A stretch of 64,000 nucleotides of DNA. It comes from Streptosporangium saharense. Its GTDB lineage: Bacteria; Actinomycetota; Actinomycetes; Streptosporangiales; Streptosporangiaceae. The stretch spans positions 806,001 to 870,000 of the forward strand of contig NZ_JACHJP010000002.1 of assembly GCF_014203715.1 (NCBI RefSeq), in the 5' to 3' direction. Below the pieces are notes generated by a model. The model had not been told where the DNA came from, made no database searches, and saw only the letters and a list, made by a program, of their open reading frames with translations. Below, one piece after another: positions 9,861 to 60,589 of the stretch. Numbering within the stretch: position 1 is the first letter of the stretch; each line of letters starts with the position of its first letter. The position numbers were made by a program, and so were the translations under genes.

Positions 9861-9877
9861 GGTCACTCCTCTGTGGT

Positions 9878-10763: not shown

Positions 10764-10777
10764 CGGGGAGAGGTGCC

Positions 10778-42834: not shown

Positions 42835-43061
42835 GCGCTGCCTCCGGCAGCGCGGGCTTGGGCGCCTGAAGTCGGTGACTTCCCTCGTCACTCCTCCGCT
42901 GCGCTGCTGCACCTCTTTGCGGCGCCTGGCGGCACCGCGGGCTTGGGCGCCCCAAGTCGGTGACTTCCCTCGTCGCTCCTCCGCTTCGCTCCCCCACTCC
43001 TCAGTCCAGACACCGACGCGCCCAAGCCGCTCCTCAGTCCAATCGCCGACGTGCCCAAGCC
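42835..43061. repeat. Intergenic repeat family, composite copy A (reverse orientation)
   Basis: It begins 2 bases after the fusion gene's stop with a perfect hairpin (GCGCTGCC/GGCAGCGC, 42835-42853), then a truncated core (42855 to about 42905), a second tail hairpin (42919-42938), a complete 89-base core bounded by GGCTTGGGCGC (42940-42950) and GCGCCCAAGCC (43018-43028), and a 33-base tandem duplication of its end (42996-43028 and 43029-43061). Relative to copies B and C it is inverted. The element lies inside the locus between two same-strand genes. Any ORF here (for example a 103-codon frame at 42833) is a by-product. Confidence 0.85.
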
Positions 43062-43090
43062 GGACACTCCTCACGCACGGCACCGGTAAC

Positions 43091-43130
43091 CCAGACCCTT
43101 CACTCCCGGCGCCGGGGGTGAAGGGTCTGG
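43091..43130 (+). terminator. 40-base palindrome before the GT2 gene (terminator or attenuator)
   Basis: CCAGACCCTTCACTCCCGGC pairs with the following 20 bases with one T-G wobble and no loop. It lies 26 bases upstream of the GT2 TTG start, so it may limit read-through from the NeuAB fusion or sit at the edge of the repeat. The first half (CACTCCCGGCGCCGGG) recurs partly in copy C. Confidence 0.55.
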
Positions 43131-43156
43131 GCGGGTTCAAATAGAAAAGGGGAAAC

Positions 43157-44086
43157 TTGATCACGTTGTCCGTTGTCGTCCCGGTGAAGGACGCCGAGCT
43201 CTACATCTCCGACGCGTTGACCTCGCTGGGCAGGAACGCGCGCAGGGACTTCGAGTTCATCGTGGTCGACGACGGATCGACGGACGCGACCGGGCAGATC
43301 ATCGATGATTTCCGCGACGAGCTGCCCGGTCTGGTCGTGCTGCGCAACGAGGCGCCGGTCGGGCTGGCCGACGCCCGTAACCTTGGGACCTCGCTGGCCT
43401 CGGGGCGCTACCTGACCTTCATGGACGGCGACGACTGGCTGGCGCCCGGCTATCTCGCCGAGCTGGTCGGGGCCATCGAACGGCTCGGCTGCGACTTCGT
43501 CCGGGTGGACCACGTCCAGGCGGAGGGGCGCAAGCGTGTGATCCACCGGGCGCCGCTGGCCGTACGGGAAACAGTGGTCAAGCCCCGCGACCACATCCTG
43601 CCCGCGGGGGTGAAGACGATGGTCGACTACCCCTACGCGTGGGCCGGGATCTACCGTCGTGACCTGGGTGAGCTGCTGACCTTCCCCGGGCACCTGCACA
43701 CCGCGGAGGACCGGCCGTGGATCTGGCGCCTGCACCGGCAGGCGGGGTCGTTCGCGGTGGTCTCGCTGGCGGGCCTGTTCTACCGGAGGATGGTCGCGGG
43801 GTCGCTGACCCAGGTGGGCGACGCCAGGCAGCTGCACTTCTTCGACGCCTTCGACCTGGTCTTCGCCGACCTGGAGGAGGAGTTCGCCCCGAAGGCGGTG
43901 CGCACCTTCTGCGCCCTGCTGGCCCACCACCTCGAACTGGCCGACCGCTTCTCCCCCGACCTGCGCGTCCGCTTCGAGGAGCGCGGCGCCGAGGCCCTCA
44001 GGCGGCTACCCTCCGACCTGCTCGCCGCGAATCGGCTGGACCCGGAACGTGACCAGATCCTGCAGAGGCTGTTGGAGACCCGATGA
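43157..44086 (+). CDS. GT2 family glycosyltransferase
   Basis: A 309-aa GT-A enzyme: VVVPVKDAELYISDALTSLG, the nucleotide-binding FIVVDDGSTDATGQIID, and DXD-like TFMDGDDWLAPGYLAELVG. The TTG start follows AGGGGAAAC; no ATG lies nearby in frame. Its stop overlaps the next gene's ATG (ATGA). It probably adds a sugar to the same glycan as its neighbours, perhaps the acceptor for the nonulosonate. Confidence 0.9.
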   Translation: MITLSVVVPVKDAELYISDALTSLGRNARRDFEFIVVDDGSTDATGQIIDDFRDELPGLVVLRNEAPVGLADARNLGTSLASGRYLTFMDGDDWLAPGYLAELVGAIERLGCDFVRVDHVQAEGRKRVIHRAPLAVRETVVKPRDHILPAGVKTMVDYPYAWAGIYRRDLGELLTFPGHLHTAEDRPWIWRLHRQAGSFAVVSLAGLFYRRMVAGSLTQVGDARQLHFFDAFDLVFADLEEEFAPKAVRTFCALLAHHLELADRFSPDLRVRFEERGAEALRRLPSDLLAANRLDPERDQILQRLLETR

Positions 44087-45375
44087 CACAGTTGTTCTAC
44101 GCCTCGACACTGTTCGGCGCGATGACGCTCGGGGCGGCGATCGACGAGGGCCTCTTCGGCCCGAACCCGGGCCGAAGGATCCTGCTGGTCTCGAACAACG
44201 CGGCCATCCCGGAGATCACCCCCTCCCTCGACCAGGCCCCCGGCTTCGCCGCGCTGCGCCCGCGCTTCGACGAGGTGTGGTCGTGGAACGACATCGTGGC
44301 GCCGCTGCACCCCTCCGACTGGAAGGCCCGCGTCATCGAGGTCCCGATGCTGGGCCGTCTCCTGCGCTCCCACCTCTCCCTGGAGGAGGGGCCTCAGGAG
44401 CTGGTCCTGGAGTCCATCGCGGTGCCGCCCGCCAGGACGATCGCCGGTCTGGTCAAGGACTGCCCGATCACGGTCTACTCCGACGGCCTGATGAGCTACG
44501 GCCCGACCCGCGACCCCCTGCCGCAGGAGATCTCCGGGCGGATCACCCGCCTGCTCCACCTGGACCTCGTGCCGGGCCTGTCGCCGCTGCTGCTGTCCGA
44601 GTACGGCGTGCCCGCGCGCGCCCTGCCCGACCGGGCCTTCCTTGAGGTCGTCGCCCAGACGGAACGGCTCACGCACGGTACCCGGGACCTCCCCCGGGGC
44701 CAGGCGATGATCCTCGGCCAGTACCTGTCGGCGCTCGACATCGTCACCCAGGACGAGGAGGCCGGGCTGCACGCGGACATGCTGCGCGGCCTGGCCGCCA
44801 GGGGGTTCCGCTCGGTGCTGTTCAAGCCGCACCCCGCGGGCGGGCGGCGGCACGCCCAGCGGCTCCGCGAGACGGCCACGGAGCTGGGGGTGACGTTGAC
44901 GGTCGTCGGGGAGAGCGTCCCCGCCGAGTCGTGCTTCGCCACGCTGGCGCCGGAGCTGGTCGTCGGCTGCTTCTCCACGGCCCTGGTCACCGCGAGCAGG
45001 CAGTTCGGCCTTCCTGTGGCGACGCTCGGGGGTGACCTGGTGCTCGAACGGCTGGCGCCGTACGAGAACAGCAACCGTGTCCCGGTCACGATCACCGACG
45101 CCCTGCTGCCACGCCTTTCCCCGGACGGCTCGCTGGAGGAGCCGCCCCCGGTGGACCTTCCCGCGCTGGTCGGCGCCGTCGGCTACTGCATGCAGAGCGA
45201 CACCCATCCGGAGCTGCGGGAGCGGGCCGTCGCCTATCTGGAGGCCAACGGCCCCGCCCGCTACTTCAAGCGCCAGCGCCTGACGGCCCTCGACCTGCTC
45301 CCCCGCTCCCCGGCCAAACCCACCCCCGGCCCCCTGGACAAACTCCGCCGCCGCCTCTCCAGAGCCCTCTCCTGA
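44083..45375 (+). CDS. Polysialyltransferase-like protein (POLYST family)
   Basis: A 430-aa protein with traits of bacterial alpha-2,8-polysialyltransferases: an opening TQLFYASTLFGAMTLGAAID, the D/E-D/E-G-like motif in VYSDGLMSYGP, the HP motif in LFKPHPAGG, and a late Ser/Thr in VVGCFSTALVTA. It is coupled by ATGA overlap to the GT2 gene and stands two genes after the CMP-nonulosonate fusion, which supplies the donor. The C-terminus is basic (DKLRRRLSRAL), as in membrane-associated transferases. The family call rests on motif pattern and context. Confidence 0.82.
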   Translation: MTQLFYASTLFGAMTLGAAIDEGLFGPNPGRRILLVSNNAAIPEITPSLDQAPGFAALRPRFDEVWSWNDIVAPLHPSDWKARVIEVPMLGRLLRSHLSLEEGPQELVLESIAVPPARTIAGLVKDCPITVYSDGLMSYGPTRDPLPQEISGRITRLLHLDLVPGLSPLLLSEYGVPARALPDRAFLEVVAQTERLTHGTRDLPRGQAMILGQYLSALDIVTQDEEAGLHADMLRGLAARGFRSVLFKPHPAGGRRHAQRLRETATELGVTLTVVGESVPAESCFATLAPELVVGCFSTALVTASRQFGLPVATLGGDLVLERLAPYENSNRVPVTITDALLPRLSPDGSLEEPPPVDLPALVGAVGYCMQSDTHPELRERAVAYLEANGPARYFKRQRLTALDLLPRSPAKPTPGPLDKLRRRLSRALS

Positions 45376-45399
45376 CCCGACGCTCCCGACGCCGCGCGT

Positions 45400-45596
45400 G
45401 AAGAGTTGGGGTTACCGGTGCCGTGCGTGAGGAGTTTCGGCTTGGGCGCGTCGGTGAACTGGACTGAGGAGCGACGGAGCGCAGCGGAGGAGCGACGAGG
45501 GAAGTCACCGACTTCAGGCGCCCAAGCCCTCGCGGCGCCGAAGGCGCCGCAAAAGCAAGCACAGCCAAGCCCGCGCCGCCGCCAGGCGGCGCAAAG
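45400..45596. repeat. Intergenic repeat family, copy B
   Basis: It fills the gap between two converging genes. Leader ACCGGTGCCGTGCGTGAGGA, then a 90-base core bounded by GGCTTGGGCGC (45439-45449) and GCGCCCAAGCC (45518-45528), with inner pairing TCGGTGA/TCACCGA. A tail hairpin GCGGCGCC/GGCGCCGC (45532-45550) follows, then AAAAGCAAGC and a second, partial tail (hairpin GCGCCGCC-GCCA-GGCGGCGC, 45573-45592). Between the leader and the core end it differs from copy C at only two positions. Confidence 0.88.
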
Positions 45597-45611
45597 CAAG
45601 CACAACTCCGC

Positions 45612-46808
45612 CTATAAGCGCAAATACCTGCGCATCCGGCGTTTGGCCCGGTAACCCACGCGCAGGACGTTGGGGGGGACCTCGACGCGTAGGCGGGCGC
45701 GGCGGCGGGCGGCGGCGTACTGGGGGCCGTCCAGGAGGGAGGTGGCCGGGATGAGGCGTCCCGAGCGGGCCTGGCCGACGAGGCTGACCATCTGCGAGAC
45801 CCAGTCGCTCTCGCCGTTCGGGTGGAAGTAGTTCGCCCCGCACCAGGCCGCGTCCGGGCTGTGGAAGCGACCCTGGGCCAGGTCGTCCAGGGTGCCGAGC
45901 AGGCCGCTGCCCTCGAAGACCAGGTTGATCATCTCGGCGCTGACGCCGAAGTCGGACAGCACCAGCAGCGGCACGTCCTGGGCGATGGCCTCAAGGGCGG
46001 CGGTCGAGCTGACGGTGACGAACCCGGCGGCGTGCGCCAGGTGCTCGTGCATGGCTCCGGCGGCGAAGCGCACCGCGCCGGGGCTGACCCGTCCCTCGGT
46101 CTCCAGGCTCTGCCACAGGCGCTGGTAGCCGTGGCGTTCGTTGTGGGTCTGGCGTTCGTTGTCCAGGGCGCGCAGTTTGACGACGACATCCAGGTCGGGG
46201 CGGTGTCCGGCCAGGTCGGCCAGCGCGAGCAGGATCCGTTCCCGGTCCTCCCTGCGTTTCGGCACCTTGGCCTGGGTGGCGAACACGACGCGGTCACGGG
46301 GGCCGGTCGCGGGGACCTGCCCGCCGTCGCGCAGGAACGGCAGCCGGGTGAGGCCGATCTGGCCTCCGCCGCCGAGTTCCTTGCCGATGGCGGAGAACTC
46401 CTCGACCTCCCGGCCGCTGTGCAGGACGAACAGGTCGCAGCCGCTGCGGAAGATCCACGCCTTCTCCGTCGCCGGGATGGAGATGCCCGGCAGGCCGGAG
46501 ACGAAGACGGGCCGTGGGGCGAGGCCGGAGAGGACCTCGCTGACCAGCACGTCCACCACGGGTCCCGTGCAGGCGACCAGCACCACGTCGGGCCTGAACC
46601 GCTCGGCGGCCCGGCGCAGGGCCCTGGCGGACAGCACGGGCGGATCCCCGGCCGCCCCGGCCACGGCCGCGTGGATCTGGGCCGGTGAGGGCGTGATGGG
46701 AGTACGGACCACCGTCAGCTCCGCCGTACAGCCCGAGGGCAGGCCCTCAAGCAGGTAGGCGGCCCACTTCAGGTAGGAATCCGAGTCGGCCACGGCCAGG
46801 ACCTTCAA
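45612..46808 (-). CDS. DUF6716-type putative glycosyltransferase
   Basis: A 398-aa protein starting LKVLAVADSDSYLKWAAYLL, then PDVVLVACTGPVVDVLVSEV, FVSGLPGISIPATEKAW, FATQAKVPKRREDRERI, a sugar-donor-like VTVSSTAALEAIAQDVPLLV and a basic end (VGYRAKRRMRRYLR). The pattern is that of capsule-type GT-B glycosyltransferases annotated as DUF6716 in actinomycetes. TTG 46808 overlaps the previous gene's stop (TTGA). It is convergent with the polysialyltransferase-like gene and belongs functionally to the same locus. Confidence 0.8.
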   Translation of the reverse strand: MKVLAVADSDSYLKWAAYLLEGLPSGCTAELTVVRTPITPSPAQIHAAVAGAAGDPPVLSARALRRAAERFRPDVVLVACTGPVVDVLVSEVLSGLAPRPVFVSGLPGISIPATEKAWIFRSGCDLFVLHSGREVEEFSAIGKELGGGGQIGLTRLPFLRDGGQVPATGPRDRVVFATQAKVPKRREDRERILLALADLAGHRPDLDVVVKLRALDNERQTHNERHGYQRLWQSLETEGRVSPGAVRFAAGAMHEHLAHAAGFVTVSSTAALEAIAQDVPLLVLSDFGVSAEMINLVFEGSGLLGTLDDLAQGRFHSPDAAWCGANYFHPNGESDWVSQMVSLVGQARSGRLIPATSLLDGPQYAAARRRARLRVEVPPNVLRVGYRAKRRMRRYLRL

Positions 46809-47842
46809 CCTGTGACTCCAGTGTCGTGATGGGCGAACATTGACAGATGGGTTCTGAGGGAGGGTGCCGCCTGGGCGGTCCACCACTCGTCGGGGACGTC
46901 CACGGTCTCCACGACGACGCCGCGGGCCGACAGCAGGACGCGCAGGGAGGTGACCGCGGTCGAGGGCAGGCTCAGGACCCGCTGCTCGGCGCCCAGTCCC
47001 CGCAGGGTCATCTCGGCGGGGGCGCCGCCGTCGTAGACGGTGATCCCGGGCTGCTCCCCGACCCTGGCGAGGTCGCCGGGGTCCTCCCTGCGGTGCGGGA
47101 AGTAGGCGACGGGCCCGGTCGAGCCGAGTCCGGCCAGCCACCCGAAGTAGTGGTCGCGGTGGATGAGGCCGTTGCGGACCAGGGAGGTGCCCAGGACGAC
47201 CGTGCGCTCCCTCGGCCCCGGCCTGCGCATGGGCTGGGACCTGAGCCAGGCGAAGTCGTGCGTGACCAGCTCGGCTCCCCGTTCGCGTACGGCACGCGCC
47301 AGGTCGTCGGGGACGGGCAGCGCCGTGAAGATCGACAGGCCGCCCGCGTGGGCGGCGGCCCGCAACCTCATGCCCGCGGCGGAGCCCAGGGCCTTCCTGA
47401 GCGGGCCCGAGGTGGCCCTGGCCCGCAGCAGGGGCGTCCAGAACCGTCCGGTGAGCAGTTCCAGGAGCCTGATCGTGGCCAGGCCGTCGTCGACGATCAC
47501 GATCCGTCCCGGCAGGGCGGTGAGCCAGGCCGCCTGGACCTTGCCGGAGAAGGCGTCGCCGACCGCCCAGGTCGTGCCCCTGCGGGGCCGGGGCATCTCG
47601 GGTGAGGGCTCGGCGAGTTCCAGTCCGGCGGGCGGGCCGAGTTTGGTGATCTCACGGCGGGTGACGACCAGCGGGCGCAGCCCTGCCCTGGGTATCACCC
47701 GTGCGTGGGTGCCGAGCAGCCCCGCGTGGTGGGCCTCCACGGCGCAGAGCATCTGCAGCGGGGACTCCACCCAGGCGACGGCCGAACCCTGCTCCCGCGC
47801 GTGGTCTCGACCGTCCTCCACGCCGGGCGATGACCCGTTCAC
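46805..47842 (-). CDS. GT52/sialyltransferase-like protein
   Basis: A 345-aa protein with AWVESPLQMLCAVEAHHAG near the start, a D-D-G motif in IVIVDDGLATIRLLELL, and a P-H-R motif in GPVAYFPHRREDP, followed by a donor-loop-like LSLPSTAVTSLRVLL. The D/E-D/E-G and H-P-type motifs are those of bacterial sialyltransferases of the GT52/GT38 group. GTG 47842 follows GTGAGG; the frame upstream (to 47899) has no better start. It is coupled to the DUF6716 gene by TTGA overlap. Assignment is by motif and locus context. Confidence 0.72.
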   Translation of the reverse strand: MNGSSPGVEDGRDHAREQGSAVAWVESPLQMLCAVEAHHAGLLGTHARVIPRAGLRPLVVTRREITKLGPPAGLELAEPSPEMPRPRRGTTWAVGDAFSGKVQAAWLTALPGRIVIVDDGLATIRLLELLTGRFWTPLLRARATSGPLRKALGSAAGMRLRAAAHAGGLSIFTALPVPDDLARAVRERGAELVTHDFAWLRSQPMRRPGPRERTVVLGTSLVRNGLIHRDHYFGWLAGLGSTGPVAYFPHRREDPGDLARVGEQPGITVYDGGAPAEMTLRGLGAEQRVLSLPSTAVTSLRVLLSARGVVVETVDVPDEWWTAQAAPSLRTHLSMFAHHDTGVTG

Positions 47843-47943
47843 GACCGCCTCACCGTAACCCGGATGTCTTACACGCCCGGGAACTACGGGTGAACACACG
47901 AATATGCCCTCTTGCGAGCCGTACTCTTAACGATCTACCGTCG

Positions 47944-47964
47944 TGTACGAAACCGTTTCGTACA
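47944..47964. promoter_or_regulatory. 21-bp perfect palindrome upstream of the SDR (TetR-type operator)
   Basis: TGTACGAAAC-C-GTTTCGTACA: 10+1+10 bases without a mismatch, 23 bases ahead of the SDR start. This size and AT/GC pattern suit a TetR-family repressor, but no TetR gene is adjacent. Confidence 0.65.
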
Positions 47965-47987
47965 GCGGGCCCCCGGAGATGCGAATC

Positions 47988-48869: not shown

Positions 48870-49239
48870 CCGATCCCTGCCCCGGACCGTGAGCACCCCG
48901 GCCGGGAGTAAAGGGACCCCCTCTTGACCCGGCAAAGGGCGGGTCGGCCAAAAGATCTACGTTTACCTGGCACGCGGAGCCCGGCTCCTTACCTTTTACA
49001 TGACCTGTCATGCCGCGATCCCCTTTCCCGCAAGGGTTTGCGTCATCAAAAGGAAGATCGGCGAGGTCGGGTGAGGGCCCAGTCTTCCCCCTCGTTCGGG
49101 GTCCATTCCAAAGCCAAGGCAATGTGTCGGACTTGTAATCGTCTGTCCGGTTCACGTACGTTCAACGAATTCGTGGCGAACGCCTAGACCCTCACAGGTC
49201 AACGCATTGCCACCACATTGCCCGACCGTGATCCATCAG

Positions 49240-49392
49240 GTGGATCCCCATCCGATGGACACGGCCGCCGAATCCGCAAGTTTCGCGGAACCGGGGACCC
49301 AAGTTTTTGGGGTGAATCAGCGCATAGGCGCTGTAGGACACTTTCCAGTCCGAACCCGTCAGCTAACCCGGTAGGCGGCATGGAAGCGACGC
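49240..49392 (+). promoter_or_regulatory. c-di-AMP (ydaO/yuaA) riboswitch
   Basis: The leader of the CHAP gene contains the ydaO signature blocks in order: CCGAATCCG (49269), GCGGAACCGGGGACCCAAG (49285-49303), GGGGTGAATC (49310-49319), GGACACTTTCCAGTCCGAAC (49336-49355), CCGTCAGCTAACC (49356-49368) and GGCGGCATGGAAG. This class binds c-di-AMP and normally turns off cell-wall hydrolase genes in actinomycetes. The stretch 48870-49239 upstream holds the presumed promoter and no gene. Confidence 0.9.
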
Positions 49393-49407
49393 AAGGAGCA
49401 ATACCCC

Positions 49408-50100
49408 ATGGCCAAGCACCGCCTTACCTCCACCCCCAAGACGCACTACCTGGCCCGTGTCATCCTCGGCACCACCATCGCTCTCAGCGGTGGGGTCATC
49501 GCCGCCCCCGCCTTCGCGGACACCCCCGAGCAGACCTCGGCCACCGTCCAGAACGCGAGCGCCGGCACCGCAAAGACCAGCCTCCAGACCGCGGCCGAGC
49601 GCCTGCCCAAGGTGTCCGCCCAGCAGATCCTGGACATCGCCTCCCGTCAGATCGGCGTCAGCGAGAACGCCCAGGGCGGCGGCACCAAGTTCCAGTCCTG
49701 GTACATGTCCACCGAGCGCGCCAGGGAGACCACGGCCCGCGACGGCGGCCGGATCCAGGACTACGCCAACGCCCCCTGGTGCGCGATGTTCGTCTCCTGG
49801 GTCGGCGAGCAGGCCGGCATCCGCCCCACCATGGGCTGGGACGCCTACACCGTCACCCACGCCAAGTGGTTCAAGGAGAACGGTCACTGGGGCACCGCCC
49901 CCAAGCCCGGCGCGGTCGTCTACTTCGACTGGCAGGGCAGCAAGGACATCGACGGGATCGACCACGTCGGCTTCGTGAAGCAGGACAACGGCAACGGCAC
50001 GATCACCACGATCGAGGGCAACACCGGCAACGGCAAGGTCGAGCAGCGCGTCCGTCCGACCTCCCAGGTCGTCGGCTACGGCTACCCGGTCTACAGCTGA
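49408..50100 (+). CDS. Secreted CHAP-domain peptidoglycan hydrolase
   Basis: A 230-aa exported protein: signal peptide (HYLARVILGTTIALSGGVIA, cleavage near AFADT), a linker, and a CHAP amidase/endopeptidase domain with catalytic Cys in NAPWCAMFVSWVGEQAG and His in DGIDHVGFVKQ, then VGYGYPVYS. CAAGGAGC precedes the ATG. Translation or transcription is governed by the upstream c-di-AMP riboswitch, coupling wall turnover to osmotic signalling. Confidence 0.93.
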   Translation: MAKHRLTSTPKTHYLARVILGTTIALSGGVIAAPAFADTPEQTSATVQNASAGTAKTSLQTAAERLPKVSAQQILDIASRQIGVSENAQGGGTKFQSWYMSTERARETTARDGGRIQDYANAPWCAMFVSWVGEQAGIRPTMGWDAYTVTHAKWFKENGHWGTAPKPGAVVYFDWQGSKDIDGIDHVGFVKQDNGNGTITTIEGNTGNGKVEQRVRPTSQVVGYGYPVYS

Positions 50101-50238: not shown

Positions 50239-50262
50239 CGGCGTTCCGGTTTCCGGTCGTGG

Positions 50263-50276
50263 TGGGAGCGCTCCCA
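50263..50276. promoter_or_regulatory. CelR/CebR box 1
   Basis: TGGGAGCGCTCCCA is an exact match to the 14-bp palindrome bound by the cellulose-utilisation repressor CelR/CebR of actinomycetes. It lies 232 bases before cebE. Confidence 0.9.
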
Positions 50277-50391: not shown

Positions 50392-50405
50392 TGGGAGCGC
50401 TCCCA
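50392..50405. promoter_or_regulatory. CelR/CebR box 2
   Basis: A second exact TGGGAGCGCTCCCA, 129 bases downstream of the first and about 100 bases before the cebE start. Two sites suit a looped or cooperative repression of the cebEFG operon. Confidence 0.9.
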
Positions 50406-50507
50406 GCACGCTGAGGAACCGCCTCGTCGCGGAATCGTATCTGTCGGGGACCGTCCGCGGCGACCACCTCCCACCTATTCGGGCGACCAACCTGAGAGGG
50501 GTCCGGA

Positions 50508-51842
50508 ATGTTGAACGACAGGCGGCGTGGCAGGCTCGCCGCGGTCACGACGATGACGGCCGTCGCGCTGGCCTTGACCTCGTGCGGCTCCGGCCAGGCG
50601 GACGGCCCCGCGTCCACGGCGGCGGAACCGGTCGTCATCACCGTCCACACCTTCGGCGGCGGCGAGAACTTCGGCTACGACAAGGCCGCGGCGACCTGGA
50701 ACGCCGCCCACCCCGGCATCCAGATCAGGTACCAGAACCTGACCGACCGCTTCGAGGACGTCTACCTGCCCCAGTTGCTCCAGCGGCTGCAGGCGGGCAG
50801 CGGCGCGGCCGACGTGGTCGCCCTGGACGAGGGCGCGATGGGCCTGATGAAGGCCCGGCCGCAGTTCTTCACCGATCTCGGGCAGTACGGCCTCGGCAGC
50901 CGCAAGGCCGACTTCCCCCCGGCGAAGTGGGACAACGGCGTCAACGCCGAGGGGAAGCTGTTCGCCCTCGGCACCGACATCGGCGGCATGACCATGTGCT
51001 ACCGCACCGACCTGTTCGAGAAGGCGGGCCTGCCCACGGACCGCGAGGAGGTCGGCAAACTCTGGCCCGACTGGGCGTCCTTCATGGAGGTCGGCAAGAA
51101 GTTCCAGGCCGCCAACCCCGGCAAGGACGACCCGCGCTTCCTCGACGGCCCGAACACCCTCTACAACGTGATCCTCGCCCAGGAGGCGCAGAGGAACGGC
51201 GACATCACCTACATCGACAAGGCCAACAAGCTCGTCATCGACACCAACCCCGCTGTGAGGACCGCCTTCGACACGGTCAGGAGCTTCAGCGAGGCCGGGC
51301 TGACCGCCAAGCTGGCCTCCTTCACCCCGCCGTGGAACGCCGCTATCAAGAAGGGCGGCTTCGCCACGATGGGCTGCCCCGCCTGGATGCTCGGCGTGGT
51401 CTCCGGCGCGGCGGGCGACTCGGGCAAGGGGAAGTGGGACGTCGCGACGGTGCCGGGTGGCGCCGGGAACTGGGGTGGTTCCTACCTCGCAGTCACCAAG
51501 CAGTCCAAGCATCCCAAGGAGGCCGCCGAGGTGGTGAACTACCTCACCGGCAAGGAGGGGCAGATCATGGCCTTCCAGGAGGCCGCCGCCTTCCCCAGTT
51601 CCCTGCCCGCCCAGCGGGACCCGGCGGTCGGCGACCTGAGGAACCCGTTCTTCAACGACGCGCCGACCGGAAAGATCTTCGGCGCGTCGGTCGAGAACCT
51701 GCGGCCGGTCTTCCTCGGCGAGAAGCACGCCCAGGTGAAGACCGCGGTCGAGAAGATCCTTGAGGGCATGGACCAGGGCTCGGTCCCCTACGACCAGGCC
51801 TGGCAGAGGTTCCTCGACGCCGGGGTCAAGGCCGCGGGCTGA
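50508..51842 (+). CDS. cebE: Sugar ABC transporter binding lipoprotein (cellobiose type)
   Basis: A 444-aa extracellular solute-binding lipoprotein: basic start, hydrophobic TAVALALTSCGSG with lipobox Cys, then a family 1 binding fold (ITVHTFGGGENFGYDKAAAT, DVVALDEGAMGLMKARP, ALGTDIGGMTMCYRTDLFEK). First gene of cebEFG-bglC-celR, under two CelR boxes. Cellobiose/cello-oligosaccharide specificity is inferred from the boxes and the GH1 beta-glucosidase partner. No ATPase gene lies in the operon; the MsiK-like ATPase at 30750 may serve it. Confidence 0.88.
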   Translation: MLNDRRRGRLAAVTTMTAVALALTSCGSGQADGPASTAAEPVVITVHTFGGGENFGYDKAAATWNAAHPGIQIRYQNLTDRFEDVYLPQLLQRLQAGSGAADVVALDEGAMGLMKARPQFFTDLGQYGLGSRKADFPPAKWDNGVNAEGKLFALGTDIGGMTMCYRTDLFEKAGLPTDREEVGKLWPDWASFMEVGKKFQAANPGKDDPRFLDGPNTLYNVILAQEAQRNGDITYIDKANKLVIDTNPAVRTAFDTVRSFSEAGLTAKLASFTPPWNAAIKKGGFATMGCPAWMLGVVSGAAGDSGKGKWDVATVPGGAGNWGGSYLAVTKQSKHPKEAAEVVNYLTGKEGQIMAFQEAAAFPSSLPAQRDPAVGDLRNPFFNDAPTGKIFGASVENLRPVFLGEKHAQVKTAVEKILEGMDQGSVPYDQAWQRFLDAGVKAAG

Positions 51843-55113: not shown

Positions 55114-55130
55114 AGTCCGGAGAATCTTTC

Positions 55131-56153
55131 ATGGGGGCGAGAAACATGAACGGCGACCGTCGTCCGACCCTTGAGGCGGTCGCGGCCCTGGCCGGGGTCG
55201 GACGTGGCACGGTCTCGCGGGTGATCAACGGTTCGCCGAAGGTGAGTGAGAAGGCCCGCGACGCCGTACAGCAGGCGATCAGGGAGCTCGGCTACGTCCC
55301 GAACCGGGCGGCCCGCACGCTGGTCACCCGGCGCACGGACACCGTCGCGCTGGTGGTCTCCGAGTCGGAGCTGCGGGTGTTCGACGAGCCCTACTTCGCC
55401 GGGACCATCCGCGGCATCGGCTCGGCGCTGTCGGAGACGGGCCTGCAGCTCATCCTGACGATGGCCCAGTCGCGGCAGGACCACGAGCGCCTTGAGCACT
55501 ACCTGACGGGCCAGCACGTGGACGGGGTGCTGCTGATCTCGCTGCACGGGGCCGACCCGCTGCCCGGCAGGCTTGAGGAGATGGGGGTGCCGACCGTCAT
55601 CGGCGGCAAGCCCGTCGGGCTCGACCCCTACTGTTACGTGGACGTGGACAACAGGGCCGGGGCCAGGCAGGCGGTGAAGTACCTCCTGGGCAGGGGCCGT
55701 GGGCGGATCGCCACCATCGCGGGCCCGCAGGACATGGGGGTCGGTGTCGACCGGCTCGCGGGCTACCGTGACGCGCTGATCGCCACGGGCATGCCGGAGA
55801 TCGTGGCCTACGGCGACTTCAGCGAGGAGAGCGGCGCGCGGGCCATGCTGGGGCTCCTGGCCGAGCATCCGGAGCTGGACGCGGTCTTCACGGCCTCCGA
55901 CCCGATGGCGCTCGGCGCGCTGCGGGTGCTGCGGCAGGAGGGCAGGGACGTGCCCGGCGACGTGGCGGTTGTCGGGTTCGACGACTCGCCCGCCGGGGCC
56001 CATTCCTCCCCCCCGCTGACCACCGTGCACCAGCCGACCGAGACGATGGGGCGTCAGATGGCCCAGCTCCTGGTCGCCCGCATCAACGGCGAGCACCTCG
56101 ACCAGCCGGTGGTGATCCTCGACACGCACCTGGTGGAGCGAGCCTCCGCCTGA
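55131..56153 (+). CDS. celR: LacI family repressor of the cellobiose operon (CelR/CebR)
   Basis: A 340-aa LacI protein: HTH (TLEAVAALAGVGRGTVSRVI, NGSPKVSEKARDAV), hinge helix (NRAARTLVTRRTDTVALVVS) and effector domain (FDEPYFAGTIRGIGSALSET, GGKPVGLDPYCYVDVDN, FTASDPMALGALRVLRQEG, VAVVGFDDSPAGAHSSPPL). The first helix lines up with CelR, which binds the two boxes upstream of cebE. Start choice is 55131 with GGAGAAT; ATG 55110 (overlapping bglC) and ATG 55146 are in frame. Cellobiose is the expected inducer. Confidence 0.92.
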   Translation: MGARNMNGDRRPTLEAVAALAGVGRGTVSRVINGSPKVSEKARDAVQQAIRELGYVPNRAARTLVTRRTDTVALVVSESELRVFDEPYFAGTIRGIGSALSETGLQLILTMAQSRQDHERLEHYLTGQHVDGVLLISLHGADPLPGRLEEMGVPTVIGGKPVGLDPYCYVDVDNRAGARQAVKYLLGRGRGRIATIAGPQDMGVGVDRLAGYRDALIATGMPEIVAYGDFSEESGARAMLGLLAEHPELDAVFTASDPMALGALRVLRQEGRDVPGDVAVVGFDDSPAGAHSSPPLTTVHQPTETMGRQMAQLLVARINGEHLDQPVVILDTHLVERASA

Positions 56154-56174
56154 CCCCCCGGCGAAAGGACAGTT

Positions 56175-57056
56175 GTGTCCCGGCAGTTCATCCTTCGTGG
56201 CGGCGACATGTACGCCGAGGTCAGCCAGTTCGCGGCGGCCGTGCGCGTGCTCAGGCACGACGGTCGCGACCTGGTCGCGGGCTGGCCGCCTGAGGGACCC
56301 GTCCCCTTCTACAGCGGCACCCTGCTGGCTCCCTGGCCCAACCGGATCGACGGGGCGCGCTACACCTTCGGCGGCGTGACCCACCACCTCACGATGAACG
56401 AGGAGGCCAGGGGCAACGCCCTGCACGGGCTGGTCGCCGACGTCAGGTGGCTGCCCGTCGAGATGGGCCCCTCCCACGTACGGCTGGCGCACACGATCAC
56501 CCCGTCGCCCGGTTACCCGTTCACCCTGGACCTGCGGGTGCTCCACCACCTGACCCCCGAGGGCCTGACCACCACGCTGACCGCGGAGAACACCGGCGAG
56601 CGGGCCGCGCCGTACGGCTGCGCGCCGCATCCCTGGCTGTTCGCGGGCGAGGACGTGGAGGACTACGAGCTCCTGATGCCCGCGGACCGGGTGCTGCTGC
56701 CCGACGAGCGGATGCTTCCCGCCTCCCTTGAGGACGTCTCCGGCACGCCGTACGACTTCAGGAAACCGAGGCGGCTCGGCGCCGAGGCTGTCGACCACAC
56801 CTTCACCGGGCTGCGGGCCGAGGAGGACGGGCTGGTCAGGGTGCGGGTGCGCGGTCCCGAGGGCGGGGTCGAGCTGAGCTGGCGGGCCGCCGAGCTGCCG
56901 TGGGCGCAGGTGTGCAGCGGCACCGGGTTCGGCTACCGGGGGCTGGCGGTCGAGCCGATGACCTGCCCGCCCGACGCCTTCAACTCGGGCGTCGACCTGG
57001 TCGTGCTCAGGCCCGGCGAGACTGCCGAGACCTCCTGGACGCTGGCGCCGCTCTGA
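56175..57056 (+). CDS. Aldose 1-epimerase family protein
   Basis: A 293-aa galactose-mutarotase-fold protein: LLAPWPNRIDGARYTFGG, LTMNEEARGNALHGLVADV, GCAPHPWLFAG, VDHTFTGL (His/Asp region) and VCSGTGFGYRGLAVEPMTCP with the catalytic Glu of VEPMTCPPDAFN. GTG 56175 follows AAGGA. Probably the last gene of the ceb operon, interconverting anomers of the glucose released by BglC. Confidence 0.88.
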   Translation: MSRQFILRGGDMYAEVSQFAAAVRVLRHDGRDLVAGWPPEGPVPFYSGTLLAPWPNRIDGARYTFGGVTHHLTMNEEARGNALHGLVADVRWLPVEMGPSHVRLAHTITPSPGYPFTLDLRVLHHLTPEGLTTTLTAENTGERAAPYGCAPHPWLFAGEDVEDYELLMPADRVLLPDERMLPASLEDVSGTPYDFRKPRRLGAEAVDHTFTGLRAEEDGLVRVRVRGPEGGVELSWRAAELPWAQVCSGTGFGYRGLAVEPMTCPPDAFNSGVDLVVLRPGETAETSWTLAPL

Positions 57057-57139
57057 ACGCCCGGGGATTCCGCACGGGACACGAGGGGACGGTTTCCTTC
57101 GGGACCGGCCTGTGCGAGAATTTCATTGGGTGATGAATT

Positions 57140-58342
57140 ATGAGTCAGAACACATGCGTGATCGCGGGGGGCGGCCCCGCCGGGGCCGTGCTCGCGCTGT
57201 TGCTGGCCAGGGCGGGCGTCCAGGTGACGCTGCTGGAGAAGCACTCCGACTTCCTGCGCGACTTCAGGGGTGACACCATCCACCCCTCGACGCTGCAGGT
57301 CCTGGACGAGATCGGCCTCGCCGAGGAGTTTCTGCGGCTGCCGCACCACAAGGCCCACACCATGGCCATGCACACCGACGAGGGGACGAGGCCGATCGCC
57401 GACCTGTCCAAGTTGAGGGGTGAGTATCGCTACATCGCCTTCGTCCCGCAGTGGGACTTCCTCAACCTGGTGACCGGTGCCGCCGCGCGCTACCCCACCT
57501 TCCGGCTCATCATGAACGCCGAGGTGCACGACGTGATCCGGGAGGGCGACGCGGTGCGCGGGGTCCGCTACCGCGACCCCGACGGCGAGCACGAACTGCG
57601 CGCGACACTGACCGTCGCCGCCGACGGCCGCCACTCGGACGTACGGCGCGCCGCCGGGCTCGTCCCGGTCGAACACGGCGTGCCGATGGACGTGGTGTGG
57701 TTCCGGCTGCCGCGCGAGGAGAGCGACCCGGACGAGACGTTCCTGCGTCTTTCGTCCGGCAGGCTCATGGTGGTGATCGACCGGGGAACCTACTGGCAGC
57801 TGGCCTACGCCATCCCCAAGGGCGGCTTCGACGCGCTGCGGGCAGACGGCATCGGGACGCTCAGGCGGCAGGTGGCGGAGCTGCTGCCCTTCCTCGCCGA
57901 CCGCACCGGGCGGCTGACCGGCTTCGAGGACGTCAGCGTGCTCTCGGTCGCGCTCAACCGGCTGCGCCGCTGGCACCGGCCCGGCCTGCTCGTCATCGGG
58001 GACGCCGCGCACGCCATGTCGCCGGTCTTCGGCGTCGGCATCAACCTGGCCGTGCAGGACGCGGTCGCCGCGGCGAACCTGCTGGCCGGACCGCTGGCCT
58101 CCGGCGCGGAGATCCCCGAGTCACTGCTGGCCAGGGTGCAGCGTCGCCGTACGGTGCCGACCGTGGTGACCCAGTTCGCCCAGCGGGTGGTGCAGAACCG
58201 GCTGATCCGGCCCACGCTGGCCGGGCGAGGCGCCCCCGCGGGGCTGCCGCGTGATCTCGCTCACCTTCCCGTGGCCGGCGCCCTGGCCCGCCGTTTCATC
58301 GGTCTCGGCGTCCTTCCCGAACACGTCAAGAGCCCCTCGTGA
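57140..58342 (+). CDS. FAD-dependent monooxygenase (group A aromatic hydroxylase type)
   Basis: A 400-aa flavoprotein: GxGxxG in CVIAGGGPAGAVLALLLARA, LLEKHSDFLRDFRGDTIHPS (second FAD region), DG motif in VAADGRHSDVRRAAGLV, and the third motif LLVIGDAAHAMSPVFGVGIN. This is the p-hydroxybenzoate hydroxylase-like group. RBS is weak (GGTGA at suitable distance). Substrate not predicted; antibiotic inactivation or aromatic catabolism are both possible. Confidence 0.85.
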   Translation: MSQNTCVIAGGGPAGAVLALLLARAGVQVTLLEKHSDFLRDFRGDTIHPSTLQVLDEIGLAEEFLRLPHHKAHTMAMHTDEGTRPIADLSKLRGEYRYIAFVPQWDFLNLVTGAAARYPTFRLIMNAEVHDVIREGDAVRGVRYRDPDGEHELRATLTVAADGRHSDVRRAAGLVPVEHGVPMDVVWFRLPREESDPDETFLRLSSGRLMVVIDRGTYWQLAYAIPKGGFDALRADGIGTLRRQVAELLPFLADRTGRLTGFEDVSVLSVALNRLRRWHRPGLLVIGDAAHAMSPVFGVGINLAVQDAVAAANLLAGPLASGAEIPESLLARVQRRRTVPTVVTQFAQRVVQNRLIRPTLAGRGAPAGLPRDLAHLPVAGALARRFIGLGVLPEHVKSPS

Positions 58343-58477
58343 ACCCGCAACGGATCTTCGGCCACCTCACGGCCCCTCACTCGCGGGCCCCCTGACACCT
58401 TCAGGGGAACAAAGAGGTTCTCAATCTGTGGACGTTGAGGTGGGTTCGTCCACGAGGTTGCAATAGCCTGGTATGTC

Positions 58478-59809
58478 GTGAGCAACTACCTCGATTCCTG
58501 GCGGGAGCTTCCCGCGGCGCAGCAGCCCGAGTGGCCCGACCGCGGCGAGCTGGACAAGGTCGTCGCCGAACTTTCCGTACTTCCTCCCCTCGTCTTCGCG
58601 GGGGAATGTGACAACCTCAAGGCCGAGCTGGCGGCGGTGACGCGTGGCGAGGCCTTCGTGCTGCAGGGTGGCGACTGCGCCGAGACGTTCGCCGGGGCCA
58701 CCGCCGACGGCGTGCGCAACAAGCTGAAGACGCTGCTGCAGATGGCGATCGTGCTCACCTACGCGGGGAGAGTCCCCGTGGTGAAGATCGGCCGGATAGC
58801 GGGGCAGTTCGCCAAGCCCCGCTCGAAGGGGACCGAGGTCCGCAACGGTGTCGAGCTGCCCGCCTACCGGGGCGACATGGTCAACGGCTTCGACTTCACC
58901 CCCGAGTCCCGCATCCCGAACCCGGAACGGCTGCTTCGCGCCTACCACTCCTCCGCGGTGACGCTGAACCTGGTCCGCGCCTTCACCAAGGGGGGCTACG
59001 CCGACCTGCGGCAGGTGCACGCCTGGAACCAGGACTTCGTGAGCGAGTCCCCCGCGGGCAAGCGCTACGAGCGGCTCGCCAGGGAGATCGACCAGGCGCT
59101 GGCGTTCATGCACGCCTGCGGGGCCGACCCGGCCGAGTTCCACGGCGTGGAGTTCTACTCCTCGCACGAGGCGCTCATCCTCGACTACGACAGGGCGCTG
59201 ACCAGGGTCGACTCCAGGACCGGCGAGCCGTACGACGTGTCGGCGCACATGGTCTGGATCGGCGAGCGCACCCGCCAGCTCGACAGCGCGCACGTGGAGT
59301 TCTTCTCCCGCATCCGCAACCCGATCGGCGTGAAGCTCGGCCCGACGACGACTGCCGAGGACGCCCTGGCGCTGGTCGACAAGCTCAACCCCGACAACGA
59401 GCCTGGCCGCCTGACGTTCATCACCAGGATGGGCGCCTCCAAGATCCGCGAGCACCTGCCCGCCCTGGTGGAGAAGGTCACCGCGAACGGCGCCCAGATC
59501 GCCTGGATCTGCGACCCGATGCACGGCAACACCTTCGAGGCCCCCAGCGGCCACAAGACCCGGCGTCTCGACGACGTGCTCGACGAGGTCGCGGGCTTCT
59601 TCGAGGTGCACCGGGAGCTCGGCACGCACCCGGGCGGCATCCACATCGAGTTCACCGGCGACGACGTCACCGAGTGTGTGGGTGGCGCCTACGAGATCGC
59701 CGAGGACGACCTGGCGCTGCGCTACGAGACGGCCTGCGACCCTCGGCTGAACCGGAGCCAGTCGCTGGACATGGCCTTCCGGGTCGCGGAGCTCTACCGC
59801 TCATCCTGA
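58478..59809 (+). CDS. Class II DAHP synthase (3-deoxy-7-phosphoheptulonate synthase)
   Basis: A 443-aa enzyme condensing PEP and erythrose-4-phosphate, the first step of the shikimate pathway. Class II blocks: VFAGECDNLKAELAAV, LQGGDCAETF (metal Cys), VVKIGRIAGQFAKPRS, LPAYRGDMVNGFD, EFFSRIRNPIGVKLGPTTT, IWICDPMHGNTFEAPSGHKT and GIHIEFTGDDVTECVGG. GTG 58478; no strong Shine-Dalgarno, so a leaderless or short-leader message is possible. Usual gene names in relatives are aroG or aroH. Confidence 0.94.
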   Translation: MSNYLDSWRELPAAQQPEWPDRGELDKVVAELSVLPPLVFAGECDNLKAELAAVTRGEAFVLQGGDCAETFAGATADGVRNKLKTLLQMAIVLTYAGRVPVVKIGRIAGQFAKPRSKGTEVRNGVELPAYRGDMVNGFDFTPESRIPNPERLLRAYHSSAVTLNLVRAFTKGGYADLRQVHAWNQDFVSESPAGKRYERLAREIDQALAFMHACGADPAEFHGVEFYSSHEALILDYDRALTRVDSRTGEPYDVSAHMVWIGERTRQLDSAHVEFFSRIRNPIGVKLGPTTTAEDALALVDKLNPDNEPGRLTFITRMGASKIREHLPALVEKVTANGAQIAWICDPMHGNTFEAPSGHKTRRLDDVLDEVAGFFEVHRELGTHPGGIHIEFTGDDVTECVGGAYEIAEDDLALRYETACDPRLNRSQSLDMAFRVAELYRSS

Positions 59810-59835
59810 TTTTTCGTGCTTTTTCGTGACATACG

Positions 59836-59864
59836 AGGGTCCCACGCCGGTGGTGCGGGACCCT
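59836..59864. terminator. Bidirectional hairpin between DAHP synthase and thioredoxin
   Basis: AGGGTCCC/GGGACCCT arms around a 13-base loop containing a smaller ACG-like pairing, in an 89-base gap between converging genes. T-rich stretches (TTTTTCGTGC, TTTCGT) flank it on both sides. Confidence 0.7.
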
Positions 59865-59898
59865 TCGCGGCCTTTCGTACCCGTTTAATCCGGGAAGC

Positions 59899-60270
59899 TC
59901 AGTCGTTCTGGGCGCGGAGCTCGTTGGCCAGCTCGGCCCTGATCGCCTCCATGTCGAGCGCCCGGACCTGACCGATGAGGTCCTCAAGGGCGGGCTCGGG
60001 AAGCACCCCGGGCTGGGCGAAGACGACGATGCCGTCACGGATGGCCATGACCGTGGGGATCGAGGTGATCTCGAAGCCCTGCGCGAGCCCCTGCTCGGCC
60101 TCGGTGTCGATCTTCCCGAACTTGATGTCGTTGTGCTTCTCCGAGGACTTCTCGAAAATCGGACCGAACATGCGGCACGGCGCGCACCAGGACGCCCAGA
60201 AGTCCAGCAGGACGATGCCCTCGTCGGCGATTTCGTTGAAGTTCTTCTCGGTTACCTCAATAGTCGCCAC
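59899..60270 (-). CDS. trxA: Thioredoxin
   Basis: A 123-aa thioredoxin with active site WASWCAPCRMFGPIFEK (CAPC instead of the usual CGPC), EQGLAQGFEITSIPTVMAIRD and the cis-Pro region TSIPT. A C-terminal extension of about 15 acidic/helical residues follows. Copy C of the intergenic repeat lies upstream; ATG 60270 is preceded by AGAGGAG. CAPC thioredoxins occur in actinomycetes. Confidence 0.94.
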   Translation of the reverse strand: MATIEVTEKNFNEIADEGIVLLDFWASWCAPCRMFGPIFEKSSEKHNDIKFGKIDTEAEQGLAQGFEITSIPTVMAIRDGIVVFAQPGVLPEPALEDLIGQVRALDMEAIRAELANELRAQND

Positions 60271-60436
60271 CTGTGGCTCCTCTTCTTGTCACGTCTTGTA
60301 CGGCTCGCATAACCACTTCCCTCCCCCGGACATTCCATCCCGCCGACCCCCCGACGGCGCCGAACCCACCCCATCAAAGATGGCCAGGTCCGGCACCGTG
60401 AGCACAGAGTTTTGGCTTGAACTCCCCGGCGCCAAG

Positions 60437-60589
60437 TGTGAAGGGTTTGGGGTACCGGTGCCGTGCGTGAGGAGTTTCGGCTTGGGCGCGTCGGTGAGCT
60501 GGACTGAGGAGCGACGGAGCGCAGCGGAGGAGTGACGAGGGAAGTCACCGACTTCAGGCGCCCAAGCCCGCGACGCCGCCAGGCGTCGC
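60437..60589. repeat. Intergenic repeat family, copy C
   Basis: Same orientation and order as copy B: leader ending ACCGGTGCCGTGCGTGAGGA, core of 90 bases bounded by GGCTTGGGCGC (60479-60489) and GCGCCCAAGCC (60558-60568), and tail hairpin GCGACGCC/GGCGTCGC (60570-60589) followed by AAAG. It fills the gap between trxA and the nuclease gene. No gene is seen in 60271-60609; ORF frames here repeat those in copy A and B. Confidence 0.88.

What the first reader, a model, noticed from the sequence alone, without database searches (positions are those of the whole stretch)
42835..60589. Dispersed intergenic repeat family with conserved core and covarying hairpin
Three loci (42.83-43.06, 45.40-45.60, 60.44-60.59 kb) carry the same structured element, always in gaps between genes: a leader ending CCGGTGCCGTGCGTGAGGA, an ~90-base core bounded by the inverted repeats GGCTTGGGCGC and GCGCCCAAGCC, and a short tail hairpin. 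Between copies B and C, 15 kb apart, only two differences occur from the leader through the core. The five visible tail hairpins (two partial) have different stems (GCG-xyz-CC) but the pairing base changes too: GGC..GCC, CCG..CGG, ACG..CGT, CTG..CAG, GTG..CGC(G-U). Such compensation points to selection on folded DNA or RNA. A mobile or RNA function would be new as far as I can tell from the sequence alone.
Basis: seen in the sequence. Interest (0 to 1): 0.72.

Follow-up and report, generated by a model that had tools for sequence, protein, structure and literature searches.

The report
Dispersed hairpin repeats behind actinomycete genes
The three copies belong to a larger family of small non-coding hairpin repeats found between genes, often just behind them, in several actinomycete bacteria; their stems change sequence while keeping their pairing around a strongly conserved folded centre, which suggests selection on the folded strand.

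Summary
A covariance model finds it in 35 of 71 sampled genomes of the family and sporadically outside; an exact-motif scan also gave Rhodococcus, Williamsia, Kitasatospora and Virgisporangium, with different stem sequences. Covariation survives the wide alignment: 95.6% of cells paired against 75.2% shuffled; 19 of 20 pairs change on both sides. On one strand ('B', the + strand of copies B and C) the inner 'loop' reads as a conserved ladder of tandem G.A mismatches, usually capped by GC-GNA-GC. In the own genome elements are enriched in convergent gaps and lie near stop codons. In co-directional gaps the B strand is more often mRNA-sense (46 against 27), but not in the own genome. No linked transposase was recognised and no Rfam family matched. 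Best reading: a REP/ERIC-like dispersed repeat with a strand-specific fold, acting as a 3'-end RNA structure and spread by an unknown route. Shown: family, pairing, position. Inferred: RNA function, mobility. A single-strand-DNA role is the main rival.

The parts
42835..42853 (-). Copy A, tail hairpin 1, starting 2 nt behind the stop codon of the neuB-like gene (stop 42830-42832)
42855..42912 (-). Copy A, half core (model positions 1-58 of 89), broken near the hairpin apex
42919..42938 (-). Copy A, tail hairpin 2 (one mismatch, G-U on the B strand)
42940..43028 (-). Copy A, full core hairpin; G.A ladder at 42965-43008 on the - strand
43028..43061 (-). Copy A, piece of the other half core (model positions 56-89, E 0.0036)
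43062..43115 (-). Copy A, leader units (about 29 bp each)
43090..43131 (.). Long simple hairpin formed by the last leader unit and the following sequence at copy A
   Evidence: by eye
45385..45438 (+). Copy B, leader units
45439..45528 (+). Copy B, core hairpin (outer stem GGCTTGGGCGC/GCGCCCAAGCC, inner stem GTCGGTGA/TCACCGAC)
45460..45503 (+). Copy B, conserved G.A ladder TGGACTGAGGA...GACGAGGGAA with GC-GCA-GC apex
45532..45550 (+). Copy B, tail hairpin 1 (GAA loop on this strand)
45573..45592 (+). Copy B, tail hairpin 2 (GCCA loop on this strand)
60425..60478 (+). Copy C, leader units
60479..60568 (+). Copy C, core hairpin
60500..60543 (+). Copy C, conserved G.A ladder with GC-GCA-GC apex
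60570..60589 (+). Copy C, tail hairpin (GCCA loop on this strand)

Best explanation
This is a dispersed, non-coding repeat family of actinomycetes, of the same general kind as REP/BIME or ERIC repeats, with a strand-specific fold. Read on the B strand (leader to core to tail) each unit folds into a rod: an outer stem of free sequence, an asymmetric bulge, an inner stem of free sequence, then a conserved ladder of tandem G.A mismatches (typically UGGACYGAGGA...GACGAGGGAA) usually capped by GC-GNA-GC, followed by a short hairpin with a GNA or GNNA loop and a short tail often ending in ACAG. Shown: the family, the pairing and its covariation, the conserved ladder, placement between genes and, in the own genome, close to stop codons. 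Inferred: that the element acts mainly as RNA, as a 3'-end structure of the neighbouring transcript (termination, end protection, or binding of a protein that reads the ladder), and that it spreads as a small non-autonomous element by an unidentified enzyme or by recombination. The G.A pairs themselves are inferred from sequence; the folding program shows them as small internal loops between pairs.
For: Covariation: 39 elements from 20 genomes (picked from 167, at most 4 per genome), 97.2% of cells paired against 88.2% shuffled and 32-48% with partners slid; 70 distinct elements including Rhodococcus, Williamsia, Kitasatospora and Virgisporangium, 95.6% against 75.2% shuffled, 19 of 20 pairs with both-side changes, covariation score 0.531 against 0.166, 0 of 500 shuffles reaching it. 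Strand: RNAalifold gives -26.5 kcal/mol for B and -10.5 for the other strand; with a strand-neutral pairing rule, B-strand G-U outnumbers the other strand's G-T 59 to 6 cells, 15 to 5 distinct genome/position events, p=0.041. Loops on B: GNA/GNNA in 147 of 154 tails found in 167 elements; GC-GNA-GC or GC-GNNA-GC apex in 156 of 167. Ladder: of 66 matches to a pattern that fixed only its 5' half and apex, 61 also keep the 3' half GACGAGGGAA (47 of 52 outside Streptosporangium contigs). Position in the own genome: convergent gaps 21 of 52 against 96 of 726 background gaps, p=3e-6; nearer the stop codon in 20 of 23 co-directional gaps. 84 of 365 background stops have a >=9-bp hairpin within 100 nt, but 1 of 19 stretches beyond elements and 4 of 65 stretches between stop and element (median length 0, 17 of 65 at least 20 nt) do. 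Orientation outside the own genome: B-sense 36, T-sense 16, p=0.008. The RNA model folds the rod on B for the three copies tried and for 18 of 23 elements of other lineages (by eye).
Against: The own genome shows no orientation preference (T-sense 11, B-sense 10, both 2), and the two window copies in co-directional gaps (A, C) are T-sense. Tail-stem mismatches show no strand bias (11 G-T on T against 9 G-U on B; 7 and 7 distinct). A first, noisier wobble test with free local alignment pointed the other way (43 G-T on T against 24). Shuffle z-scores favour B in two of three copies under RNA parameters, not in copy C (-3.76 B, -4.29 T), and favour T in all three under DNA parameters. The 167 elements were collected with a pattern that fixes part of the ladder, so its invariance there is partly built in; of 17 elements found by the model alone, 5 keep both ladder halves letter for letter, while L216 and the 11 of G166 spell them differently. 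No U-run follows the hairpins (by eye), so an ordinary intrinsic terminator is not met. In one search, three of 23 folded with another centre, one is a half copy and one (viral contig) lacks the stems. No expression data were available, and several counts include positional orthologs or array copies that are not independent.
Confidence: 0.45

Rival explanations
1. The fold is kept because the element moves as folded single-stranded DNA (REP- or attC-like recognition); its place behind genes only reflects where insertions are tolerated.
For: Loops are of the GNA/GNNA class, which from recalled literature gives unusually stable DNA minihairpins (147 of 154 tails; 156 of 167 apices). By eye, at locus B none of 14 other genus genomes has a full copy (one has a collapsed remnant), and at locus C none of the five others with the same short neighbour gene has one. 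Compound forms recur at several loci, and there is no orientation bias in the own genome.
Against: No HUH/Y1 enzyme follows the elements: G013 and G015 have blastn element matches but no Y1_Tnp match, and G012 has 9 Y1 matches but no blastn element match; no RAYT over cut-off in 16 genomes. DNA folding parameters do not recover the ladder in the three copies tried. B-sense bias outside the own genome.
Confidence: 0.3
2. Covariation without selection: template switching at quasi-palindromes rewrites one arm from the other, and gene conversion homogenises copies within a species.
For: Stem types differ between species groups, also at the shared locus A, so copies evolve together within lineages.
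Against: It does not predict a non-Watson-Crick ladder kept across families (61 of 66; but 12 of 17 model-only elements spell it differently), the excess of B-strand G-U in the core, or the fixed GNA/GNNA loops.
Confidence: 0.1
3. Bidirectional transcription terminator, replacing the ordinary hairpin behind the gene, with no other role.
For: Enriched in convergent gaps and adjacent to stop codons; few other strong hairpins next to elements; at locus C several sister species have an ordinary hairpin where the own genome has the element (by eye).
Against: A plain terminator needs no conserved purine ladder and no strand preference; only 84 of 365 background stops have a strong hairpin at all, and 1 of 19 is a small sample.
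Confidence: 0.1
4. Remnants of one transposon family whose full copies carry a transposase.
For: Dispersed, multi-copy, inverted terminal stems.
Against: No transposase among the 25 most shared of 206 Pfam families in 96 flanking proteins (two TniB-model matches there look like general ATPase hits). Ten proteins between or beside close element pairs are enzymes, transporters, a kinase, one Uma2 domain (putative endonuclease) and one without a Pfam match. With the patterns used, no leader or tail module lay without a core in 1.2 Mb plus the window.
Confidence: 0.05

Closest known systems
REP elements / BIMEs (GTAG class, RAYT-associated) and CGTC REPs
   Same: Short palindromic, intergenic, multi-copy, mosaic or tandem arrangements; hypothesised roles in termination and mRNA stability (PMC3733652, abstract and passages seen).
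   Different: REPs are 20-40 bp simple hairpins tagged GTAG or CGTC; here a ~90-nt core with a conserved mismatch ladder plus a tail hairpin. The word Actinobacteria does not occur in that paper's main text, and high-G+C Actinobacteridae are reported to carry only subclass 1.1 tnpA Y1 genes (PMC6006769, passage seen). The T strand does contain CGTC and CCA, but the stretch between them is not a Watson-Crick palindrome.
ERIC/IRU repeats of enterobacteria
   Same: About 127 bp, intergenic, imperfect palindrome, kept at some loci (recalled, not tested).
   Different: No sequence relation tested; different phylum; no conserved G.A ladder recalled for ERIC.
MITEs
   Same: Small, non-autonomous, inverted terminal stems, dispersed.
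   Different: No parent transposase recognised and no target-site duplication tested; stems differ between lineages.
Integron attC sites
   Same: Strand-specific folded recombination site lying behind stop codons (recalled).
   Different: No attC core motif seen by eye; elements lie in both orientations among ordinary chromosomal genes; integrase not searched.
Structured RNA families in Rfam 15
   Same: Covariation and conserved internal-loop sequence, as in ncRNA families.
   Different: No Rfam family matched over the copies tested.

Membership tests
REP (GTAG/RAYT) | GTAG or GTGG tetranucleotide 5' of a short hairpin | tested here: not met
   Not in the invariant columns or the consensus of A1/A2
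REP (GTAG/RAYT) | Associated RAYT gene in the genome | tested here: not met
   NF047646 over cut-off in 0 of 16 genus genomes (weak matches below it in 10 of 16); Y1_Tnp counts do not follow elements
CGTC REP | CGTC tag, simple 20-40 bp palindrome, CCA-like tail | tested here: not met
   CGTC and CCA occur on the T strand, but the intervening stretch folds only as a mismatch ladder on B
MITE | Terminal inverted repeats shared with an autonomous transposon | tested here: inconclusive
   Inverted stems present; no partner transposon recognised near elements (partial listing); whole genome not scanned for one
MITE | Target-site duplication | not tested
   No close strain with an empty site was available
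Intrinsic terminator | G+C-rich hairpin followed by a U run | tested here: not met
   B-strand tail hairpins are mostly followed by A-rich sequence; on the T strand the tail hairpin runs into GGGCTTGG; by eye
Integron attC | Integrase and attC core sites, cassette arrays in one orientation | tested here: inconclusive
   Elements in both orientations among ordinary genes; core-site motif judged by eye only and integrase not searched
Known Rfam RNA family | Score at or above a family's gathering threshold | tested here: not met
   Window at gathering threshold: only a c-di-AMP riboswitch elsewhere; L001, L008 at E<=5: two sub-threshold matches outside the element; L254, L246, L289, L222 at E<=1: none
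Structured RNA or ssDNA element (general) | Compensatory changes beyond shuffled and slid controls | tested here: met

The most novel reading that the evidence does not exclude
An undescribed class of structured mobile RNA: a small selfish or regulatory RNA whose conserved sheared-G.A ladder is read by a dedicated actinomycete protein, that moves between families with free stem sequences and inserts behind stop codons, possibly through an RNA intermediate.
Probability: 0.15. Interest if true: 0.85.

Novelty: new variant of a known kind. Interest (0 to 1): 0.62.

Why it matters
Dispersed palindromic repeats are best known from proteobacteria, and many have no known driver. Here is an actinomycete family with a clear signature: stems free to change but kept paired, around a conserved non-Watson-Crick centre. 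That makes the question 'what reads bacterial interspersed repeats, and on which strand or molecule?' directly testable, and the family is a ready candidate for a curated RNA or repeat model. It may also bear on how transcripts end in high-G+C bacteria with few classical terminators (recalled background; here 84 of 365 stops had a strong hairpin).

Tried and rejected
Rho/rut idea: on the T strand the loop is C-rich and G-poor, which suggested a Rho site. It was dropped because orientation does not follow the T strand and the conserved fold is on the other strand.

RAYT/Y1 mobilisation: not supported. Hammerhead-like motif CUGANGA...GAA noted on the B strand; rejected by inspection because the flanking strands cannot form the required stems. 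CsrA-sponge idea (GGA repeats): not tested. Integron attC: set aside on recalled features; integrase not searched.

First wobble test used free local alignment; it gave G-T on T 43 against 24 and many mispaired cells. I replaced it with an anchored rule (163 of 167 elements used, 4 dropped for N or fewer than 6 of 8 inner pairs; the outer stem was the best of 36 offsets and was counted only if at least 5 of 6 positions paired, which inflates its pairing). Both are reported. One search used a faulty pattern and was replaced (102 clusters, 11 at contig edges left unclassified; elements closer than 300 bases merged; 11 Streptosporangium contigs skipped that overlap genomes already counted).

Change after checking: the 167 elements were gathered by a ladder pattern, so I weakened 'near-invariant' to 'conserved', added as a less biased look, and moved template switching from 0.08 to 0.10 and plain terminator from 0.12 to 0.10.

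DNA folding parameters did not recover the ladder. Plasmid and phage collections: no match at E<=1e-5. Viral contigs: one contig, whose flanks fold poorly. Literature searches. Seen as listings, some of them partial (10 of 44, 8 of 18, 10 of 34, 12 of 161, 20 of 21 shown); no listed title or abstract describes this element. Passages only were read of PMC3733652, PMC12306157, PMC6006769, PMC4666352 and PMC5217627.

Half copies: in the own genome 9 of 10 hits for one half lie within 200 nt of a full copy (the tenth looks like coding sequence), broken near the hairpin apex at CAG-like joints. I considered 5'-truncated retroposition, but slippage or array deletion explains them as well, so no claim is made.
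Full report
What was claimed and what is there. All three are real. Copies B (45385-45615) and C (60425-60589) share orientation; copy A (42835-43115) is inverted and compound. B and C differ at two positions from leader through core. I call 'B strand' the strand read leader-core-tail (the + strand of copies B and C, the - strand of copy A) and 'T strand' its complement.

Copy number. blastn of copy B against the own genome gives 52 pieces, with 40 of 127 first-look candidates scored. The stem word GGCTTGGGCGC occurs 63+61 times against 18+9 for the reversed control. The first 1.2 Mb of contig 1 holds 12 cores, which scales to about 85 in 8.5 Mb. Covariance model R1 matches all 55 candidates it was allowed to score, so 55 is a floor. 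With the patterns used I saw no tail or leader module without a core in that stretch and the window.

Distribution. blastn of the core matches 20 of 41 genomes, own included, in 7 of 24 genera, all in one family. R1 matches 35 of 71 genomes sampled in the family (34 of 68 genera). In the order it matches 28 of 81 at E<=1e-4, with none in the 4 genomes outside that family. In the class it matches 7 of 148, two of them in other families: G166 with 23 matches of 26 scored, and G179 with 1. Model R2 over 396 genomes of the phylum matched only G000 and G166, with 10 candidates scored per genome and strict filters, so it can miss weak or few copies. An exact pattern for the 5' half of the ladder and its apex returned 60 stretches of genome contigs, including Streptosporangium, Planomonospora, Planobispora, Nonomuraea, Planotetraspora, Thermoactinospora, Rhodococcus, Williamsia, Kitasatospora, Antrihabitans, Virgisporangium and one unclassified actinomycete MAG. 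Contig lengths identify G001, G006, G007 and G011 as S. pseudovulgare, S. carneum, S. sandarakinum and S. subroseum, so the own genus is Streptosporangium. No plasmid or phage record matched.

Fold. On 39 elements from 20 genomes (picked from 167, at most 4 per genome, under 90% alike), RNAalifold gives -26.5 kcal/mol with 20 pairs for the B strand and -10.5 with 12 pairs for the T strand. For the named structure, 97.2% of cells pair (shuffled 88.2%, slid 32-48%) and 11 of 19 pairs change on both sides. With 63 distinct rows including G166: 97.6% against 83.9%, 16 of 20 pairs. With 70 distinct rows including the other genera: 95.6% against 75.2%, 19 of 20 pairs, score 0.531 against 0.166, 0 of 500 shuffles reaching it. 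Alignments A4 and A5 were fitted to the model, so they lean towards it; A2 was aligned by MAFFT without a structure, although the structure was adapted from its own consensus. Of 23 elements of other lineages folded singly, 18 show long stems, of sequences that differ between lineages, around the ladder; 3 have the stems with another centre, 1 is a half copy and 1, on a viral-labelled contig, lacks the stems (by eye).

The centre. In the 39-element alignment TGGACYGAGGA and GACGAGGGAA are invariant or nearly so (25 invariant columns), but these elements were gathered with a pattern that fixes part of both halves. Two less biased looks: of 66 matches to a pattern that fixed only the 5' half and apex, 61 keep GACGAGGGAA (47 of 52 outside Streptosporangium contigs); of 17 elements found by the model alone, 5 keep both halves letter for letter and 12 (L216 and 11 of G166) spell them differently. 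On B the RNA model pairs the short steps between purine loops that read as tandem G.A pairs (the G.A pairing is my inference). The apex is GC-GNA-GC in 147 and GC-GNNA-GC in 9 of 167 elements, with all four bases at N; 11 differ. Tail hairpins have GNA (93) or GNNA (54) loops in 147 of 154 tails found; 13 of 167 elements gave no tail. In Rhodococcus, Williamsia, Kitasatospora and Antrihabitans several tails read GC-GA-GC-loop-GC-GA-GC, where Streptosporangium has Watson-Crick pairs (by eye), which looks like exchange between G.A and standard pairs. G166 has other stems and a different ladder spelling but the same plan, including a GGA-loop tail and, in most of the 11 copies shown, an end like CAAAATTACAG.

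Which strand. With a strand-neutral pairing rule on 163 of 167 elements, 2168 of 2270 cells are Watson-Crick; G-U on B outnumbers G-T on T 59 to 6 cells, and 15 to 5 distinct genome/position events (p=0.041). Against this: tail stems show no bias (11 G-T on T, 9 G-U on B), a first noisy test pointed the other way (43 to 24), and shuffle z-scores are mixed: under RNA parameters B is better in two of three copies, under DNA parameters T in all three.

Where. In the own genome 52 distinct gaps hold elements (from 70 hits; 4 hits in two overlapping loci and one at a contig end were left out): 21 convergent, 23 co-directional, 8 divergent. Background gaps of 30 bp or more are 96, 427 and 203. Convergent gaps are enriched 4.4-fold (p=3e-6); divergent gaps are fewer (p=0.053). 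In co-directional gaps the core lies nearer the stop codon in 20 of 23 (median 56 against 154 nt). Orientation there is even: T-sense 11, B-sense 10, both 2. In the other lineages, 102 clusters gave B-sense 36, T-sense 16, convergent 27, divergent 12, edge 11, and none overlapped a called gene by more than 30 nt. In the own genome two half-core hits overlap a called gene, by 14 and 42 nt. Pooled: B 46, T 27 (p=0.034); convergent 48, divergent 20 (p=0.0009). Positional orthologs and arrays make these counts partly dependent. Genes were called with my own codon-usage script, trained on the own genome, also in the other lineages.

Hairpins next to elements. 84 of 365 background stops have a >=9-bp hairpin within 100 nt (4 after shuffling). 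Beyond elements in co-directional gaps it is 1 of 19; between stop and element 4 of 65, where the median residual length is 0 and only 17 of 65 stretches have 20 nt or more. This fits the element standing in for the usual 3' hairpin but is a small sample.

History at three loci. At locus A, 15 of 16 genus genomes have the neighbouring gene. By eye, a full element lies behind the neuB-like stop in 7 (G000, G001, G003, G004, G006, G007, G009), part of one in 2 (G013, G015), a tail-like hairpin only in 3 (G002, G011, G014), and none in 3 (G005, G010, G012). Stem types differ between species groups: G000 and G006 share one, G001, G004 and G007 another, so copies are old in place yet evolve together within lineages. 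At locus B only G000 has a full element and G006 a collapsed remnant; several of the other 13 have a different next gene. At locus C the gene was found in 13 genomes; several have an ordinary hairpin behind the stop where G000 has the element, none of the five others with the same short neighbour gene has the element, and G001 has three units in a different neighbourhood (by eye). Tandem arrays of about 115 bp occur in G001 and G007. Half copies broken near the apex lie beside full copies.

What drives it. Among 96 flanking proteins of own-genome elements the most shared Pfam families are common ATPase, transporter and enzyme domains; 25 of 206 families were shown. Ten proteins between or beside close pairs are ordinary, apart from one Uma2 domain and one without a match. 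Y1_Tnp matches 14 of 16 genus genomes but not in step with elements, and no RAYT passes its cut-off. The enzyme or route of spread is unknown.

Reading. The simplest account is a REP/ERIC-like dispersed repeat whose B strand is kept folded and which often lies at transcript ends. Position, the pooled B-sense bias and the RNA fold favour RNA as the selected form. The loop class (recalled DNA minihairpin literature) and the lack of orientation bias in the own genome favour single-stranded DNA. I put the RNA 3'-end reading at 0.45 and the ssDNA reading at 0.3.

Known or not. No Rfam match over the copies tested. The two REP surveys, read by passages, do not mention Streptosporangium, and the word Actinobacteria does not occur in the main text of Di Nocera et al.; Quentin et al. 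report only subclass 1.1 Y1 genes in high-G+C Actinobacteridae. My literature searches listed no description of this element in what was shown; most subscription papers and preprints are not held.

Noticed in passing
window 49256-49392 (+): c-di-AMP riboswitch (RF00379), 97.1 bits, upstream of the gene called at 49408-50100.
   Followed up: no
window 3613-6087: Two neighbouring genes share long direct repeats (228 nt at 80%, 121 nt at 74%), so they look like a tandem paralogous pair.
   Followed up: no
window 50247-50276 and 50392-50421: Inverted pair containing the palindrome TGGGAGCGCTCCCA in the gap before the gene at 50508; it resembles a LacI-type operator (recalled).
   Followed up: no
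L121, L122, L127, L129, L134, L139 and window 42855-42912: Half cores broken near the hairpin apex lie 78-85 nt from a full core at several loci, as if a compound 1.5-unit form had spread.
   Followed up: partly
L188 (G007) 9804-10945; L185 (G001) 9313-9763; L295 (Rhodococcus tibetensis) 121-485: Tandem arrays of the element with regular periods of about 115 bp (Streptosporangium) and 130 bp (Rhodococcus).
   Followed up: partly
L215, L221, L222, L224, L226, L228, L230, L232, L234, L236, L238 (G166): A genome of another family carries at least 23 copies with its own stem types, while a genus mate (G237) gave no match with 10 candidates scored, which may mean lateral arrival or loss.
   Followed up: partly
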